Assembly (NCBI GenBank): GCA_902777125.1
Contig: CACYSQ010000008.1
Location: 1-64,000, forward strand
Origin: Ruminococcus flavefaciens
GTDB taxonomy: Bacteria > Bacillota > Clostridia > Oscillospirales > Ruminococcaceae
Direction: 5' to 3'
Length of the DNA: 64,000 nucleotides
Shown one piece after another: positions 49,579 to 55,822 of this stretch (its first letter is position 1; each line of letters opens with the position of its first letter). Made by a program: the position numbers and the translations under genes. The notes beneath the pieces were generated by a model that was given only the letters and a program-made list of their open reading frames with translations, ran no database searches and was not told the origin of the DNA.

Positions 49579-49612
49579 ATGCCCCGAAGCGTTTCAAAGC
49601 GCCCCGGGGCAT
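49579..49612 (+). terminator. terminator between convergent genes
   Basis: ATGCCCCG and CGGGGCAT enclose an imperfect GCG-TTTC-AAAGCG inner stem, followed by TTTCATTTTC. It serves the membrane protein gene and possibly also the convergent transglutaminase gene. Confidence 0.7.
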
Positions 49613-49684: not shown

Positions 49685-51109
49685 TCAGAAGCAGAAGCTT
49701 ACGGCTGTATCCGGCTTGCAGTCGTTAACATCGAAGGTCGCAAAGCCGCTGTAGCAGTACAGATCATTACCGGTCACCTTTTTGAGGTCGCTGCCATATA
49801 CAAAGCGGTTAACGTCCACTGTCAGGTCTAACTCGATCCAGCCGTCGCCCGAGATGTAGGCCGCGTTCCAAGCGTGTCTGGTGTTGTTAAGGACTACGCA
49901 GGGTATTCCTGCCTCGCGGCACATGATCGCGAATATGCACGAGAAATCAAGGCACACGCCGGTATTGTTCTTTGAGAGATACATCATGGTGTTCAGAACT
50001 CCGTTGGCGAAATAGCGCGGATATTTCAGGACATTGACCTTGTAGTAGTCGTATTTCATGTTTGACGTCATCCAGTCGTGCAGAATGAGAAGCTTTCTGC
50101 CGGCATTGATATTGCCGTATTTATCGAGTATCTCATGCGACTTGTTTCTCCAGAACTTTGTATCGCTGTTGGTCCTGTTCGCACAAAAAGGATAGATGAC
50201 ATCGGGATTGAGCGCTTTTGATATGGTAACGTCCTCGGAAGCGAGCAGGTCAGTGAGTTCATTCCGTCTTTTTGCAGGTGAGAAATTATCGGAGACCTTG
50301 CGCTGTTCACCGTAGCAGATGTAGAACTCATAGTCGGAAGGTCTGTCAGACTTACAGTTCACGAACATATAGAGCTGACAGTGCTGGGGTCTGCCTTTGA
50401 AGGTATACTCTGCGTCGATCTTGTAGATGCCGTTCACGAAGCACTGATCGTAGAGGTCGGCGCCGAGCGTCATCTGGAGGGAACCGCTCTTTTTCCTGTT
50501 GAGGTTGGTTTTGAGCTTAGCGTTCTTGTTCTGTGAGAGCGTCATGGTGATATTCTTGCAGACGATATCGTCCTTGATGGAATTGAATTTCACCGTGAGA
50601 TACCTGTTGTTCTCGATCTTCGCATAGAGCTGACCGTATCCCGAGGAGTGGAACTGATCGCCGTTGATACCGATACCGGTCACACCGATTTTGCTCATGT
50701 GGTAGAAGTACCATTTCCATGAATTTGAAACGGTGAAGAGGTCGTTGCTCTTTTTGAGGTAGACCATGCGGTCCTCGATTTTTTTCCCGTTTTCGACCGA
50801 TAAGTAGTTCAGGTACTTCTGACGGGCAGGCTTTTGGGTCGTGCTGCTGTAGTTCTGCTTTTTGTAGCTGCCGGCAGAGGTCGTGGTGGTCGTGGTCGTG
50901 GTGACGTAGTACTGTCTTTGTGAGCGTGTCACCTTTGTGGAAGATGATGAGCTGCTTCCTGAGCCGGAATATCCCGAGCTGTAAGACGAGCTGCAGCTAT
51001 AGCTGTAGGACTGGGCTGAATAAGCAGCGCCGGCGTCCTTTCCTCCTGTGAGACCTGCGGCAGAGACCGCCATAACTGTTGAGAGTAATAATGAGATAAG
51101 CTTTTTCAT
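49685..51109 (-). CDS. secreted transglutaminase-like protein, LytTR-controlled
   Basis: A signal peptide (MKKLISLLLSTVMAVSAAG) precedes a Ser/Tyr/Gly-rich stretch with a run of eight threonines (about residues 30-95). A beta-rich middle region of unknown type follows (VYLKKSNDLFTVSNSWKW, LKTNLNRKKSGSLQMTLG). The C-terminal transglutaminase-core domain has the catalytic triad as Cys in TGVCLDFSCIFAIMCREAGI, His in NNTRHAWNAAYI and Asp in WIELDLTVD. Such secreted proteins act as cysteine proteases or cross-linkers; which one is unknown. LytTR promoter site 1 lies 52 bases upstream. Confidence 0.85.
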   Translation of the reverse strand: MKKLISLLLSTVMAVSAAGLTGGKDAGAAYSAQSYSYSCSSSYSSGYSGSGSSSSSSTKVTRSQRQYYVTTTTTTTTSAGSYKKQNYSSTTQKPARQKYLNYLSVENGKKIEDRMVYLKKSNDLFTVSNSWKWYFYHMSKIGVTGIGINGDQFHSSGYGQLYAKIENNRYLTVKFNSIKDDIVCKNITMTLSQNKNAKLKTNLNRKKSGSLQMTLGADLYDQCFVNGIYKIDAEYTFKGRPQHCQLYMFVNCKSDRPSDYEFYICYGEQRKVSDNFSPAKRRNELTDLLASEDVTISKALNPDVIYPFCANRTNSDTKFWRNKSHEILDKYGNINAGRKLLILHDWMTSNMKYDYYKVNVLKYPRYFANGVLNTMMYLSKNNTGVCLDFSCIFAIMCREAGIPCVVLNNTRHAWNAAYISGDGWIELDLTVDVNRFVYGSDLKKVTGNDLYCYSGFATFDVNDCKPDTAVSFCF

Positions 51110-51160
51110 ATCATGTACCTCCGTATCTTTATTTTTGAACCGTTCTCCGGCTCTGGTTAC

Positions 51161-51229
51161 ATGATATCACATATCTCCTGCTTAATGGGAAAAATGTCGC
51201 GGAATGACGTTCTGATGTCGTGAAATGCA
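51161..51229 (-). promoter_or_regulatory. LytTR promoter site 1, upstream of the transglutaminase-like gene
   Basis: Two direct half-sites (plus-strand reading TGTCGCGGAATGA at 51195-51207 and TGTCGTGAAATGCA at 51216-51229) start 21 bases apart, two helical turns. Exactly 28 bases separate the near half-site from an extended -10 box, TGATATCAT on the minus strand (TATCAT at 51161-51166). There is no good -35 box, as expected for an activator-dependent promoter. Two further sites with the same geometry lie at 52708 and 55298. Confidence 0.82.
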
Positions 51230-51240
51230 AAGCTTCCGGC

Positions 51241-51942
51241 TCAGAAAGCCTCCTTGCTTATGTATGACATGAATGCGTCCTTGAACTCATGCTCCTTGGC
51301 TCTTGCAACGGGCAGTTTGAAGCCTCCCGCGACGGTTATCTCCTTGCCGGAGATGCCCGCTATCTTCGAGAGCGAGACCATGTAGCTGCGGTGTATGCGG
51401 AAGAAGCCCTCCTGACGGAGCTGTACCTCATAATCGTTCAGCTTGCCGCGTATCTCATGGCTGCCGGAGAGAGTGTACACGATGAGGTTCTGATCCTGTG
51501 CCTCGATAAAGACTATCTCCGAGAGCCACACTCTGCGTTCGCCGTCACGGTTTTTCAGCCACAGCGACTTCTCACTGCTCTGCTTCTTCAAAACGTGGTC
51601 GAGCACCTCGTGGACGCTCTCCTCAGTCGCCGGCTTTGTGAGGTAGCGGAGTGCATTCACCTCATAGCCCTTGAGTGCGTATTCGATATGGCCTGTCAGG
51701 AAGACTATATAAACGTCCTCGCTGAGCTCCCGCAGCTTTCTGGCGAGGGATATACCGTCCAGTCCCGGCATTTCGATATCGAGGAAGACGATATCGTACT
51801 TCACGCTCCGGAAGCTCTGCAAGAGCTGAACTCCGTCCGAAAACTCGTCCACCGCGATATCAAGACTGCGGTAAAGTCTCTCTACTATCGCGGAAAAATC
51901 ACTGACGAACCTCTTTTCATCGTCGCATACTGCTATCCTCAT
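51241..51942 (-). CDS. LytTR-family response regulator
   Basis: The 233-residue regulator has a receiver domain (acidic CDDE near residue 7, phospho-acceptor Asp in VFLDIEMPGLDG, Lys in LTKPA). Its LytTR DNA-binding domain runs from about residue 135 (SEIVFIEAQDQNLIVYT, then FFRIHRSYMVSLSKI). LytTR proteins bind pairs of direct repeats about 21 bases apart, which is exactly what is seen at three promoters around this gene. It follows the zinc-ribbon gene at 52009 and is probably transcribed with it from site 2, giving autoregulation. AAGGAGGAG precedes ATG 51942. Confidence 0.93.
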   Translation of the reverse strand: MRIAVCDDEKRFVSDFSAIVERLYRSLDIAVDEFSDGVQLLQSFRSVKYDIVFLDIEMPGLDGISLARKLRELSEDVYIVFLTGHIEYALKGYEVNALRYLTKPATEESVHEVLDHVLKKQSSEKSLWLKNRDGERRVWLSEIVFIEAQDQNLIVYTLSGSHEIRGKLNDYEVQLRQEGFFRIHRSYMVSLSKIAGISGKEITVAGGFKLPVARAKEHEFKDAFMSYISKEAF

Positions 51943-52008
51943 TTTTACTCCTCCTTGAAAGCGACTAAAGCCGCACCGCTTATGCAGTGCAGCCAAGTCC
52001 TTATTGTT

Positions 52009-52617
52009 TTACTTTATTTTTACTGTATCGAGCAGCTCCTCGAAGCAGCTCTCATCGCTCTTATTTCCGCCGACAACCAGCAAGATCACTTCATCATCGG
52101 TGACGTAAAGCTCATTGATCTCATAGTATTTAATACCTGCTATATCCTTACGGCAGCATTTGATCGTGCTGCCTTTCAATGTGACATCTGAACAAGAGCG
52201 TTCATTTATCATTTTCTTATAAACTTCTTCAGCATACTCTTCCGCAGAGAGACTTTTCTCGTTTTTATGAACGAACTGATTGAAGTATACGGTACCGTTG
52301 CCCAATTCGTTAAAATTGCGTCCCTTCTCCATGTCCTCCGGCAGTTCAATGGAAAAGCTTTCGTAATCGTATGTCTTGAGACTGGGTCTCTTGTTTTCTT
52401 TGACTTTTCTGTAGGTATTGACAAAATTGATACCGCCCAGTACGAGCAGGACGATAAGCATGAAAACGAGGACCGGGTGCTTTTTCTTTGCCTTGACAGG
52501 CTTAGCCTTATCGGCGCACAAGGGCTGTACGGGAGCTGTCTGATGTACGGTAGGACCGCAGCTTCGGCAGAACTTGACTCCGTTGTTGATCTTCTTTCCA
52601 CAATTCATGCAATACAT
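52009..52617 (-). CDS. zinc-ribbon membrane protein ZR2, LytTR-controlled
   Basis: An N-terminal zinc ribbon (CMNCGKKINNGVKFCRSCG) faces the cytoplasm, then a linker and one membrane helix (VLVFMLIVLLVLGGINFV, about 50-67). An extracytoplasmic domain of about 130 residues follows (YDYESFSIELPEDMEKG... LYVDDEV-like strands). The layout matches the neighbour at 52786 and the short protein at 55043. Site 2 lies 90 bases upstream; the response regulator gene follows 66 bases downstream. Role unknown; a membrane sensor or response protein of this regulon is a reasonable guess. Confidence 0.8.
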   Translation of the reverse strand: MYCMNCGKKINNGVKFCRSCGPTVHQTAPVQPLCADKAKPVKAKKKHPVLVFMLIVLLVLGGINFVNTYRKVKENKRPSLKTYDYESFSIELPEDMEKGRNFNELGNGTVYFNQFVHKNEKSLSAEEYAEEVYKKMINERSCSDVTLKGSTIKCCRKDIAGIKYYEINELYVTDDEVILLVVGGNKSDESCFEELLDTVKIK

Positions 52618-52707
52618 AATGATTCCTCCTGATATTATAATACTTGCCGTTTCCGGCGTTATTCAAGGTTTTGTGAGCTTTGGCGCTCTGTCCTTTGCTC
52701 TGATATT

Positions 52708-52776
52708 ATAATACCATACAGAAACGCGTATTGGTGAAAAATGTCGCGAACGGTATGAACCGTGTCGTGAAATGCA
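52708..52776 (-). promoter_or_regulatory. LytTR promoter site 2, upstream of ZR2 and the response regulator
   Basis: Direct half-sites TGTCGCGAACGG (from 52742) and TGTCGTGAAATGCA (52763-52776) start 21 bases apart. Then exactly 28 bases lead to an extended -10 box, TGGTATTAT on the minus strand (TATTAT at 52708-52713). A second TATAAT reading three bases further exists, but the 28-base geometry favours the first. Confidence 0.82.
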
Positions 52777-52785
52777 GATCTGTAC

Positions 52786-53544
52786 TTATTGTCTGACCTC
52801 TATGGTCGAGAGCCATGAGGTGAACAGATTTTCGTAGTCGTGTCTGCTGTAAAAGCCGCATACTACGATCCTGTGGTCCATGACTATCTCACGGGCGTAG
52901 ACGTAGCAGGTCATTCCGTTGTAATCGACCGTATAGCGCACGATATCGCCGGATACTTTGTAAGGCTCAGCCTTGTACTCTTTATTGTAGGTAAGCCACT
53001 TGCTTCCGAGATAATGCGAAAGTTCGCCGGGGTTGTCCTTTATGAGACCGGTGTAATGAGCGTCATCGTAATGATGTGAAGAATATGCAAAGAAGTTTGC
53101 TTTTTCAGAGCGGTAACCATAGCATTTATATGCCCACTCGAAATGTTTGCCGCCTATCTCGAGATCCTGGATATAATTACCGTATGTATTAGCCTCGTCC
53201 AAAATCATATCGGGCTGCATTGATATTGAAAAGTCATCAAATCTGTACCTTATCTTTTCCGCCTCGCCGACAACGTCGTTTTTAACAAAGCCGAGCATGA
53301 ATATGTCGATCACCAATATGAGAAAAAGCATGAAAATGAGCGGTACTATCCGCGGTATCCCACGGTCTGTGCCTTTCTTAGCCTTTGCCGGCTTTACGGA
53401 AGGAGCCTCCGGGGACTGTACCATCTGCGGCTGGACTTCCTGTGCCTGCGGCTGGAGAACCTGAGCCGCTGTGAGCTGTGTACCGCATTGCCGGCAAAAT
53501 CTCGCGTTTTCGGGACAATTGTTTCCGCATTTATTGCAAATCAT
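52786..53544 (-). CDS. zinc-ribbon membrane protein ZR1, coupled to the kinase
   Basis: The 252-residue protein has the same plan as ZR2: zinc ribbon CNKCGNNCPENARFCRQCG at residue 3, a Gln/Pro-rich linker, one membrane helix (IVPLIFMLFLILVIDIFMLG, about 68-87) and an extracytoplasmic domain of about 160 residues (FDDFSISMQPDMILDEAN). Its ATG overlaps the kinase stop (ATGA), so it is translated with the kinase. That coupling suggests the protein works with the kinase, perhaps as a co-sensor; this is inference. Confidence 0.8.
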   Translation of the reverse strand: MICNKCGNNCPENARFCRQCGTQLTAAQVLQPQAQEVQPQMVQSPEAPSVKPAKAKKGTDRGIPRIVPLIFMLFLILVIDIFMLGFVKNDVVGEAEKIRYRFDDFSISMQPDMILDEANTYGNYIQDLEIGGKHFEWAYKCYGYRSEKANFFAYSSHHYDDAHYTGLIKDNPGELSHYLGSKWLTYNKEYKAEPYKVSGDIVRYTVDYNGMTCYVYAREIVMDHRIVVCGFYSRHDYENLFTSWLSTIEVRQ

Positions 53545-54950
53545 ATACGAACCCCCGATCTCATGATAATGACAGATGCCGCAAATTCCGTATCACTGCT
53601 CTCAAAACGCACCATTGCACCATTCTTCTCAGCGGTATCCTTGATATTCTTCACGCCGAAGCCATGTCTGCTGCGGTCAGTCTTTGATGTATAGTGCGAG
53701 CCGTCACCAAGATGAGCGCAGTCCACCATATATGCGGAGCTGTTTCGCACGGTTATAATGCGCTGGAGCTCGGTCTTGCGAAGAGTGACAGAGATGTACT
53801 TCTCTGCACCTGTGACCTTCTCACAGGCTTCAACGGCGTTGTCGAGCATATTCGCAAACACCGCACAGATATCTATCGGCTTCCAGCCGATACCACCGTC
53901 AATGACGCCGTCCAGCATGAAGCGTATGCCCTTTTTCTCGATAGCAGGCAGCTTCGAGGATATGAGCGAATCGAGCATATCGTCCCCTGTGACTACTCGC
54001 GGCGAGAACGACGAGAGTTTGCCGCACAGACCGTTGATGTACTCCTCAGCCTCGGTGAACTGTCCCTTTTTCATCATCGCCGATACCAGCGAGAGGTTGT
54101 TGTTCATGTCGTGACGGAATGCGCGTGTGTCCTCCTGCGACTGCTTGTAGGCGTTCGAGGCAACAAGCTCCGCCTCAAGAAACTGCTCGTTGCGCGTGCT
54201 CATCTCGCTGTAGTAGGAGGTCTGACGGTTCCTGATTATCATCAGCGGCATGACGAAAAGCAGCACGAGGACAACGACCATTTCCGATGCCCTTATGATC
54301 AGCGGCAGTGACTCGTTAGAACGTGCCGTTATCATAACGAAGCTGTAGATTGCAGCCGAATAGTACACCAGAAACAAAACGGTATCGGTCACGCTCAGCT
54401 TCAGGAAGACCTTCTTCCGCACGAAGCTGACATACAGCCATATGCACACAATAAGTCCGATAAAAAGCGCCAGCAACATAGCAGCACCGGTCATATTCCC
54501 GAACACCGAGATCATCGTATCAATGCCGCTCTCCATGATCTTCATTATTTGCAGCAGCTTGATGATCAGCACTGAGGCTGCCACCGCACACATTAAATAG
54601 ATGTTGTACACGATAAAGAACATTATGATGCCCTCTATATAGTACATCTTCCTCATGCCGTACCGGTACAGGAATACTATCGGGTGGAACACAAAGAATA
54701 CCAGCAGCATGGGTATACTGCTCAGTGCGGTGTAAACGTCCGGACTGATATCCACCGATGACCTTGTCAAAAGCACCAAAAGTAAAAGGTATACTAAATA
54801 CGCGATGGCACTGCCGAAGCATATCAGGACGCGCTTCCGAGAAAGCTCAACGCGGTCGTCATAGAAGGTCTTGACCGCGAATGCAGGAGTCAGCGAAATA
54901 AAGGGCAGCAATACAAAAAACACTGCTGCAATTACATATTTAAGGGCCAT
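53541..54950 (-). CDS. GHKL sensor histidine kinase (AgrC/LytS-like)
   Basis: The first ~215 residues are six or seven membrane helices without a large extracellular domain. A linker helix follows, then the H-box AFRHDMNNNLSLVSAM (phospho-His). The GHKL ATPase domain comes last, with N-box FANMLDNAVEACEKV and G-box HGFGVKNIK. This is the class that pairs with LytTR regulators, and one lies 1.6 kb downstream. No AgrB/AgrD peptide genes are adjacent, so the signal is unknown. I start at MALKYVI (54950). Confidence 0.93.
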   Translation of the reverse strand: MALKYVIAAVFFVLLPFISLTPAFAVKTFYDDRVELSRKRVLICFGSAIAYLVYLLLLVLLTRSSVDISPDVYTALSSIPMLLVFFVFHPIVFLYRYGMRKMYYIEGIIMFFIVYNIYLMCAVAASVLIIKLLQIMKIMESGIDTMISVFGNMTGAAMLLALFIGLIVCIWLYVSFVRKKVFLKLSVTDTVLFLVYYSAAIYSFVMITARSNESLPLIIRASEMVVVLVLLFVMPLMIIRNRQTSYYSEMSTRNEQFLEAELVASNAYKQSQEDTRAFRHDMNNNLSLVSAMMKKGQFTEAEEYINGLCGKLSSFSPRVVTGDDMLDSLISSKLPAIEKKGIRFMLDGVIDGGIGWKPIDICAVFANMLDNAVEACEKVTGAEKYISVTLRKTELQRIITVRNSSAYMVDCAHLGDGSHYTSKTDRSRHGFGVKNIKDTAEKNGAMVRFESSDTEFAASVIIMRSGVRI

Positions 54951-54986
54951 GACAGTTATCCCCTTTTCCAAGATTTTTGCATATAC

Positions 54987-55013
54987 ATTATAATTGTACC
55001 AAAAAGCTGTAAA
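54987..55013 (-). promoter_or_regulatory. possible promoter of the kinase/ZR1 genes
   Basis: Minus strand TTTACA (55008-55013) and TATAAT (54987-54992) are only 15 bases apart. The -10 is perfect but the spacing is short. No LytTR half-sites are visible here, so the kinase operon does not seem to belong to the regulon. Confidence 0.35.
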
Positions 55014-55042
55014 CAGATGATGAATAAATGATTAACAGACTA

Positions 55043-55261
55043 TTAACGCCAGACGCTCCTTCCCATTAAATAGACGGCCAGAATCGCTGCTGCTATCACA
55101 GCCGCAATAAACAGCGCTGTGCGAAACCTTTCCGCTTTCATACGCCGCAGCTCTGAACGTTCGAGCTCTGCAAGGTCCGCGATAGGCTCACCGCACCGGC
55201 AGCAGCTTCCAGCCGCCGTGTTCACAAGCTTGCCGCATCTGCTGCAATACACCATTGACAT
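55043..55261 (-). CDS. short zinc-ribbon membrane protein ZR3, LytTR-controlled
   Basis: The 72-residue product has a zinc ribbon (CSRCGKLVNTAAGSCCRCG), a basic linker (ELRRMKAERFR) and one membrane helix (ALFIAAVIAAAILAVYLMG) ending in RSVWR. Unlike ZR1 and ZR2 it has no extracytoplasmic domain. GAGGTGG precedes ATG 55261. LytTR site 3 lies 37 bases upstream. It is the third zinc-ribbon membrane gene of the locus; function unknown. Confidence 0.8.
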   Translation of the reverse strand: MSMVYCSRCGKLVNTAAGSCCRCGEPIADLAELERSELRRMKAERFRTALFIAAVIAAAILAVYLMGRSVWR

Positions 55262-55297
55262 CGTTACCACCTCGTTCCGTTTCTGTTCTATGGCTAT

Positions 55298-55366
55298 ATG
55301 ATATCACAGAATATCTGCCGATGTGCAAAAGCGTCGTGAAGTGTATACTATATGTCGTGAATTGCA
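55298..55366 (-). promoter_or_regulatory. LytTR promoter site 3, upstream of ZR3
   Basis: Direct half-sites CGTCGTGAAGTGTA (55332-55345) and TGTCGTGAATTGCA (55353-55366) start 21 bases apart. Exactly 28 bases lead to TATCAT with extended TGA on the minus strand (55298-55303), as at site 1. Outside the half-sites and the -10 box the three sites are not alike, so the pattern is not a simple duplication. Confidence 0.82.
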
Positions 55367-55397: not shown

Positions 55398-55461
55398 AAA
55401 ATGAGCCCCGCTAATTCTTTAGCGGGGCGCTGTTGTATTGGCATGACTAAAAAGATGACAT
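55398..55461. repeat. hairpin repeat, left copy (GAGCCCCG...)
   Basis: AAAATGAGCCCCGCT...AGCGGGGCGCTG continues TGTATTGGCATGACTAAAAA and GATGACAT. The layout and many bases are shared with 55937-56000. The stem GCCCCGCT/AGCGGGGC (55405-55428) could also terminate transcription. Confidence 0.6.
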
Positions 55462-55822
55462 TCATTTTTTATTCTCTTTTGCAGTTTTCAGAGAAGCTGT
55501 AAGTATCTTTTTTATTTCAAGGCAGTCATTCAGCATTGATTCTCCGTGGGCTTTTTCAATATAATCAGTCAGGATCAATAGCCTCAGCCAATATTCAGTC
55601 TCTGCGGTTTCTTTTAACGCTATCTGCATTTTCGCTATAAAATCAGCAACGCTCACTCCATATGCTGCTTCATTTGCGTTTGCACCGATAGAAGTTCCGC
55701 TTCTGATTATCTGCTTTGAGATAATTGATTCTTTCTTCTATTTTACAAGATACTGATATAATTTTACTATCCGTGCTGCGAATGCAAGAGATTTATCTAA
55801 AAGAGGATTGTGTTTATCCATA
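55462..55822 (-). pseudogene. four-helix-bundle (S23/IVP-like) protein gene, broken
   Basis: A family-length frame can be followed from ATG 55822 (MDKHNPLLDKSLAFAARIVK, then LYQYLVK) to 55462 (ASLKTAKENKK). It contains the hallmark SKQIIRSGTSIGANANEA and VSVADFIAKMQIALKETAET. Two lesions break it: an extra T in a T5 run about 22 bases in (near 55801) shifts the frame, and an in-frame TAG follows after LVK (55738-55740). The 64-codon remnant from 55656 is only its 3' part. The family is often linked to mobile DNA and rRNA intervening sequences. Confidence 0.82.

What the first reader, a model, noticed from the sequence alone, without database searches (positions are those of the whole stretch)
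51161..55366. Three promoters share one LytTR architecture: half-sites 21 bp apart, 28 bp from the -10 box
At 51195/51216, 52742/52763 and 55332/55353 a half-site close to YGTCGYGAAnTGnA occurs twice with starts exactly 21 bases apart. In each case exactly 28 bases separate the near half-site from an extended -10 box (TATCAT, TATTAT, TATCAT on the minus strand). Spacing of two helical turns is the known LytTR/AgrA binding mode, and a LytTR regulator is encoded between the sites. Identical geometry at three unlike promoters is very unlikely by chance. It gives a testable consensus for this regulator.
Basis: partly seen in the sequence, partly recalled or inferred. Interest (0 to 1): 0.82.

Follow-up and report, generated by a model that had tools for sequence, protein, structure and literature searches.

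The report
Self-regulated LytTR promoters in Ruminococcus
Three promoters in a Ruminococcus-group bacterium carry the same two-part binding site at the same distance from the start signal, and comparison with relatives suggests that they are the private targets of the one regulator of its type found in this genome, switching on the regulator, its sensor and a secreted enzyme together.

Summary
It is not chance. A profile built from 32 sites of relatives, with no window letters in it, finds only these three places in the 2.62-Mb genome. In 297 genomes strong profile matches occur in 6 of 7 that hold an orthologous regulator and in 0 of 290 others (five of those six are the own genome or gave training sites). 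One LytTR domain was found in the genome, that of the regulator between the sites, and no AgrB.

The three sites head three transcription units of one cluster: zinc-ribbon protein, GHKL kinase, zinc-ribbon protein; zinc-ribbon protein and regulator; transglutaminase-like protein. Best reading: an autoregulated two-component system with a secreted effector. In relatives the same site often precedes a transglutaminase or a CPBP/Rce1-like membrane protease.

This is the textbook LytTR arrangement, so a new member of a known kind. The more novel extension: paralogous systems, some with AgrB, keep the frame TTCRNNNCA twice at 21 bp and 28 bp to TGnTATnAT but change the inner triplet (CGA, CCA, TTA, TGA), which suggests a recognition code. 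Binding and activation are not tested.

The parts
51216..51229 (-). site 1, distal half-site (TGCATTTCACGACA on the promoter strand)
51195..51208 (-). site 1, near half-site (GTCATTCCGCGACA)
51161..51166 (-). site 1, extended -10 TGaTATCAT, 28 bases from the near half-site
52763..52776 (-). site 2, distal half-site (TGCATTTCACGACA)
52742..52755 (-). site 2, near half-site (TACCGTTCGCGACA)
52708..52713 (-). site 2, extended -10 TGgTATTAT
55353..55366 (-). site 3, distal half-site (TGCAATTCACGACA)
55332..55345 (-). site 3, near half-site (TACACTTCACGACG)
55298..55303 (-). site 3, extended -10 TGaTATCAT
51241..51942 (-). LytTR response regulator (receiver + LytTR), the only LytTR domain found in the genome; second gene behind site 2
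   Evidence: Pfam; genome-wide family search
52009..52617 (-). zinc-ribbon protein with one predicted long helix (probable membrane anchor); first gene behind site 2
   Evidence: zinc ribbon, just under Pfam's cut-off; low-confidence model
53541..54950 (-). GHKL-type (HATPase_c_5) sensor kinase; second gene behind site 3
52786..53544 (-). zinc-ribbon protein with a long helix and a weakly PsbP/Mog1-like domain behind it; third gene behind site 3, overlaps the kinase gene by 4 bases
   Evidence: best Foldseek E 8.7e-4, low TM-score
55043..55270 (-). small zinc-ribbon protein; first gene behind site 3
   Evidence: under cut-off; ortholog with the same upstream site in L014
49685..51109 (-). transglutaminase-like protein, N-terminus looks like a signal peptide (by eye); gene behind site 1
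   Evidence: Pfam Transglut_core 3.4e-12
55405..55428 (.). terminator-like hairpin just upstream of site 3, listed on both strands
49579..49612 (-). terminator-like hairpin behind the transglutaminase gene

Best explanation
The three repeats are binding sites of the LytTR response regulator encoded at 51241-51942. When its GHKL partner kinase phosphorylates it (inferred), a dimer binds the two half-sites on one face of the DNA, two turns apart, just upstream of a poor -35 region, and recruits RNA polymerase to the extended -10 box 28 bp away. It thereby turns on all three units of its own cluster: zinc-ribbon protein, kinase and zinc-ribbon protein (site 3); zinc-ribbon protein and regulator (site 2); secreted transglutaminase-like protein (site 1). 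That makes a positive-feedback switch with a secreted effector. Shown here: geometry, uniqueness in the genome, conservation, link to the regulator clade, a single LytTR domain found. Inferred: binding, phosphorylation, activation rather than repression, unit boundaries, the nature of the signal.
For: Geometry exact. Only 3 profile matches in the genome. One LytTR domain found in the genome. In 44 ortholog loci, half-site pairs of score 20 or more of 26 occur 25 times at spacing 21 and 0-2 times at each other spacing from 14 to 35; resampled sequences 0-1. The best -10-like word lies at 28 (22 sites) or 29 (5 sites) of 33. Of 297 genomes, profile matches at E<=1e-7 occur in 6 of the 7 with an ortholog at E<=1e-50 and in 0 of 290 others; the seventh, G121, carries a variant site close to the start of its regulator gene. 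Window and L014 promoters keep half-sites and -10 while spacers drift. Terminator-like hairpins lie at both ends of the cluster.
Against: No binding or expression data. Only 18 of 44 ortholog loci carry a site at score 20 or more (25). The relaxed scan gave none in 25 of 44; four of these (L022, L024, L050, L053) do have sites, which leaves 21 of 44 without one, among them 15 of the 17 loci L031-L047 (L047 and L018 have weak candidates). The 32 training sites were chosen with a matrix seeded by the window half-sites, so the profile test is not fully independent, though -10 boxes played no part in the choice. Five of the six genomes with strong matches are the own genome or gave training sites. 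Repression is not excluded by sequence.
Confidence: 0.87

Rival explanations
1. The sites are bound by the regulator, but it represses or only fine-tunes basal transcription.
For: Sequence alone does not give the sign of regulation.
Against: The repeats lie upstream of the -35 region rather than over the promoter, as at promoters activated by HdrR (PMC6193735, passages), AgrA (PMC4227749, passages) and SilA (PMC2766830, passages); the -35 regions are poor: the consensus scan lists only site 3 of the three, at 9 of 12.
Confidence: 0.08
2. Another DNA-binding protein, not this regulator, reads the sites.
For: No direct binding data; the assembly is rated 97.5% complete, so a second LytTR gene could be missing.
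Against: One LytTR domain found in the genome; the site occurs with orthologs of this regulator and varies between regulator groups.
Confidence: 0.04
3. The repeats are leftovers of a duplication or mobile element without function.
For: Three similar stretches within 4.2 kb.
Against: Spacers and flanks differ between the three; half-sites are kept while spacers drift in L014; the same frame stands before unrelated genes elsewhere.
Confidence: 0.01

Closest known systems
LytTR direct-repeat promoters of HdrR/BrsR in Streptococcus mutans (LytTR Regulatory Systems, PMC6193735, passages only)
   Same: Two direct repeats, 9 bp with mostly 12 bp between (21-bp period), just upstream of -35 with a strong bias to 10 bp, an extended -10 at hdrRM, autoregulation. 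By my arithmetic the 9-bp core here ends about 9 bp above a -35 placed 17 bp from the -10.
   Different: Those regulators work with a membrane inhibitor; here the regulator has a receiver domain and a GHKL kinase. Half-sites here are conserved over about 12-14 bp.
agr-type quorum sensing (AgrA/AgrC) and Sil (SilA, PMC2766830, passages only)
   Same: Two-component system with a LytTR regulator and paired direct repeats; AgrA's repeats are centred near -60 (PMC4227749, passages), here about -58 if the start is 7 bases below the -10 (my arithmetic). AgrA's FFRCHNS motif matches FFRIHRS in this regulator.
   Different: No AgrB found in the genome and no AgrD recognised; SilA uses 10-bp repeats with an 11-bp spacer; targets here are a transglutaminase and zinc-ribbon proteins.
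AgrB-bearing LytTR-type loci of other genomes of the genus (L151-L153, L161)
   Same: Same frame: TTCRNNNCA twice at 21 bp, 28 bp to TGnTATnAT, up to 1 mismatch; AgrB by Pfam in L152, L153 and L161, just under the cut-off in L151.
   Different: Inner triplet TTA, TGA or a mixed one instead of CGA; an AgrB gene stands behind the site. A LytTR gene was found near the site in L151 and L161 only.

Membership tests
LytTR (AgrA/AlgR/LytR-type) regulated direct-repeat promoter | regulator with a LytTR DNA-binding domain, here with a receiver domain | tested here: met
   Pfam LytTR 1.4e-19, Response_reg 4.8e-21; the only one found in the genome
LytTR (AgrA/AlgR/LytR-type) regulated direct-repeat promoter | two direct repeats with an 11-13 bp spacer (about 21-bp period) | tested here: met
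   spacing histogram; known spacing from PMC6193735 and PMC2766830 (passages)
LytTR (AgrA/AlgR/LytR-type) regulated direct-repeat promoter | repeats just upstream of the -35 region, at a set distance from the -10 | tested here: met
   28 bases in all three; 28 or 29 in 27 of 33 sites
LytTR (AgrA/AlgR/LytR-type) regulated direct-repeat promoter | regulator binds the repeats and activates transcription | not testable with these tools
   needs footprinting and transcript data
agr quorum-sensing system | AgrB maturation protease and AgrD peptide | tested here: not met
   no AgrB match at E<=0.001 in the own genome; the seven proteins hold none; AgrD was not searched for
agr quorum-sensing system | GHKL-type multi-pass sensor kinase | tested here: met
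   HATPase_c_5 1.8e-21; membrane helices by eye only
LytTR Regulatory System (LRS) | LytTR regulator with a cognate membrane inhibitor protein | tested here: inconclusive
   the regulator carries a receiver and has a kinase in the cluster; three zinc-ribbon proteins lie in the cluster, inhibitor role untested

The most novel reading that the evidence does not exclude
In Ruminococcus and its relatives, paralogous LytTR systems share one rigid promoter frame (TTCRNNNCA twice, 21 bp apart, 28 bp to TGnTATnAT) and are insulated from each other mainly by the inner NNN triplet, read by the loop of the LytTR domain that reads EAQDQN in the window's regulator; the window's clade reads CGA. This would be a natural recognition code for the LytTR fold.
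Probability: 0.45. Interest if true: 0.7.

Novelty: new member of a known kind. Interest (0 to 1): 0.5.

Why it matters
It gives a well-supported consensus and a small, apparently closed regulon for a LytTR two-component system in Ruminococcus; in eight searches of the held library (listings, not all papers opened) I saw no description of it. Because one LytTR protein and three sites were found in the genome, it is a clean test bed. The wider pattern, one promoter frame with different triplets for different paralogs, would make it possible to test how the beta-rich LytTR fold chooses its DNA and how parallel systems avoid cross-talk.

Tried and rejected
Considered and dropped: that the sites belong to a different LytTR paralog (one LytTR domain found in the genome); that the system is an agr locus (no AgrB found); that period 21 is universal: the intended control with period 22 gave 21 matches in 11 of 297 genomes (backwards control 3), 10 of them in one genome (G088), nine of which form a real-looking TTCACTGCA class (counted by eye), so spacing differs between classes and that search is not a clean null. 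The idea that the last loop residue (N/Y versus K) sets the triplet's middle base rests on L171 and L018 and is contradicted by L047 (EAQNQK with a weak CGA-like site). In the strict-pattern search of 297 genomes the backwards control gave 3 matches against 2 outside the own genome, so the count there proves nothing; only the place of the two matches, beside the ortholog, does. The motif-blind scan also counted a run of N in L024 as self-similar at the listed spacing. Solved-structure search showed the best 60 of 273 matches, in none of which I saw a named LytTR-DNA complex. The model of one zinc-ribbon protein (mean pLDDT 61.9) was too poor to search with; the other gave only weak PsbP/Mog1-like matches. 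Passages of PMC6222199 concern an OmpR-type regulator and were not used.

Full report
WHAT IS THERE. Read on the strand of transcription (minus), each promoter is TGCAnTTCACGACA - 7 bp - a second, looser copy - 28 bp - TGnTATnAT. The sites face three genes: transglutaminase-like protein (49685-51109), zinc-ribbon protein (52009-52617) and small zinc-ribbon protein (55043-55270). Behind the second lies the LytTR response regulator (51241-51942), behind the third the GHKL kinase (53541-54950) and another zinc-ribbon protein (52786-53544) (domains; the ribbons score near or under Pfam's cut-off). Terminator-like hairpins stand just upstream of site 3 (55405-55428, listed on both strands) and behind the transglutaminase (49579-49612) (15 terminator-like matches found against 5.4 expected, so each alone is weak). 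So the three sites appear to head every transcription unit of one cluster.

IS IT CHANCE. The strict window pattern occurs three times in the 2.62-Mb genome, backwards control none. For a test with other data, 80 loci encoding relatives of the regulator were fetched (the best 80 of 392 confirmed): 44 at 42-82% identity (called orthologs here, L014-L057) and 36 at 30-37% (paralogs, L058-L093) (the split is by identity gap, no tree was built). Half-site pairs with at least 20 of 26 matches: 18 of 44 ortholog and 6 of 36 paralog loci. In the ortholog loci they number 25 at spacing 21 and 0-2 at each other spacing between 14 and 35; resampled sequences gave 0-1. The best -10-like word starts 28 bases (22) or 29 bases (5) below the near half-site in 33 sites, which include the window's; the other six lie elsewhere. 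A scan blind to the motif (extended -10 plus any self-similar 14-mers) also peaks at spacing 21: 33-34 counts at gaps 28-29 in orthologs and 28 at gap 28 in paralogs, against at most 17 at any other spacing between 17 and 25 (threshold 9 of 14; counts at neighbouring gaps overlap).

PROFILE WITHOUT THE WINDOW. From the 38 matrix hits, I dropped the three window sites and three low scorers and aligned the other 32, from 23 loci (T.CA.TTCACGACA ... TACC.TTCACGACA ... TGTGnTATnAT). The matrix was seeded with the window half-sites, so the choice is not blind, but it did not look at the -10. The profile finds in the own genome exactly the three sites at E<=10 (150 of 663 first-look candidates were scored). 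In 297 genomes 18 have a match at E<=0.001. At E<=1e-7 there are six genomes: G000, G002, G045, G066, G075 and G095. The ortholog at E<=1e-50 occurs in seven: those six and G121. Of the six, G002, G066 and G075 gave training sites and so did G045, whose contig is that of L019; G000 and G095 did not. In these six genomes the strong matches lie from about 12 bp (window site 1, at the 3' end of the regulator gene) to about 3.4 kb (window site 3) from a regulator gene. G095 has a second ortholog (L171) with two variant sites of its own, TTCGCACTG/TTCGCAATA. G121 has a variant, TTCGTGCCA/TTCGTGACG, about 55 bp above the aligned start of its regulator. In the own genome one LytTR domain and no AgrB were found.

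TARGETS. Behind the 32 sites of the ortholog loci, the first gene is a transglutaminase in L014, L015, L016 and L017 (Pfam), as in the window; a CPBP/Rce1-like membrane protease in nine (L019 through its copy L011, L026, L027, L028, L029, L041, L049, L052, L057; Pfam; in L026 604 bases away) and by similarity in two more (L050, L054; and the listed sequence); the regulator itself in L022 and L024; a zinc-ribbon protein for two sites of L014 and one of L016. The other 12 have small, unassigned or distant genes or none before the contig end. L014, the closest relative, keeps all three promoters and the gene order apart from one extra open frame, and there half-sites and -10 are kept while spacers are not. 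So the theme is a kinase-regulator pair that drives itself in some loci and, at 15 of the 32 sites, a transglutaminase or a membrane protease.

HOW IT MOST LIKELY WORKS. Published LytTR activators bind 9-10-bp direct repeats with 11-13 bp between them, just upstream of -35 with a strong bias to 10 bp for one group, and activate their own operons (PMC6193735, PMC4227749, PMC2766830; passages only). Taking the 9-bp core here as positions 2-10 of the half-site, it ends about 9 bp above a -35 placed 17 bp from the -10: the same arrangement. The regulator keeps the FFRxHxS motif (FFRIHRS). I therefore expect phosphorylation by the kinase, dimer binding and activation with positive feedback. The signal is unknown; no AgrB was found, and the zinc-ribbon proteins, one with a weakly PsbP/Mog1-like domain, are candidates for a sensing or damping role (inference).

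THE WIDER PATTERN. Weaker profile matches turned out in part to be variants in the same frame. A pattern that leaves the inner triplets free, TTCRNNNCA-N12-TTCRNNNCA-N25-TGNTATNAT with one mismatch, gave 32 matches in 27 of 297 genomes, backwards control 1. The two free triplets of a match are identical in 19 of 32 (shuffled pairing 3.5, 0 of 10,000 as high); without the CGA class 12 of 25 (2.5, 0 of 10,000) (the genomes are related, so these are not independent). Classes with identical triplets: CGA 7, CCA 5, TTA 4, TGA 2, TCC 1. The same pattern with period 22 gave 21 matches in 11 genomes, about half of them one other class in a single genome. CCA sites precede an operon with a peptidase M13 protein, FtsX, ABC, regulator and kinase in L063 (M13 by Pfam) and similar operons in other loci. 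TTA sites (L151, L152) and a TGA site (L153) stand near AgrB genes, as does a mixed one (L161) (in L151 the AgrB score is just under the cut-off). Many of the fetched matches have no LytTR gene in the stretch, L152 and L153 among them, and those with unequal triplets may be chance. The LytTR loop differs between groups (EAQ[DN]Q[NY] in 16 of 25 CGA rows, EADNN[ST] in 9 of 9 CCA rows, some of them duplicates, EAKTHN in G121), which fits a code but is confounded with ancestry.

VERDICT. Real, well supported, and of a known kind. The consensus, the apparently closed regulon of three sites with a single LytTR protein, and the shared frame with changing triplets are what is worth taking further.

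Noticed in passing
L184-L190 (genome G088): A LytTR-like site class with a 22-bp period, TTCACTGCA twice, occurs nine times in one genome of the genus (counted by eye); of eight located, five stand shortly before genes for small proteins with signal-peptide-like starts: perhaps a scattered regulon of a different paralog.
   Followed up: partly
L019 1043-1077 and L020 745-779: In the R. flavefaciens FD-1 locus and its close relative the site has extended -10-like words on both sides at 28-29 bases, so one repeat pair may serve the CPBP protease gene and the divergent regulator gene.
   Followed up: no
L092 4713-4722: Two CCA-like repeat pairs on opposite strands lie between divergent genes.
   Followed up: no
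L171, L018, L172, L047: LytTR loop and site seem to change together (EAQNQK with TTCGCACTG/TTCGCAATA in L171 and a weak similar site in L018; EAKTHN with TTCGTGCCA in L172), with L047 as an exception.
   Followed up: partly
window 51150-51155 and 52697-52702: A few bases below the -10, where transcription should start, sites 1 and 2 and several relatives read CAGAGC; site 3 reads CATAGA.
   Followed up: no
window 55462-55656: Short gene matching the 23S rRNA-intervening-sequence protein family lies next to the cluster.
   Followed up: no
L151 6235-8025: A TTA-class site in an AgrB-like locus lies beside and faces a gene for a protein with a dockerin domain, hinting at control of a cellulosome-type protein by an agr-like system.
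   Followed up: no
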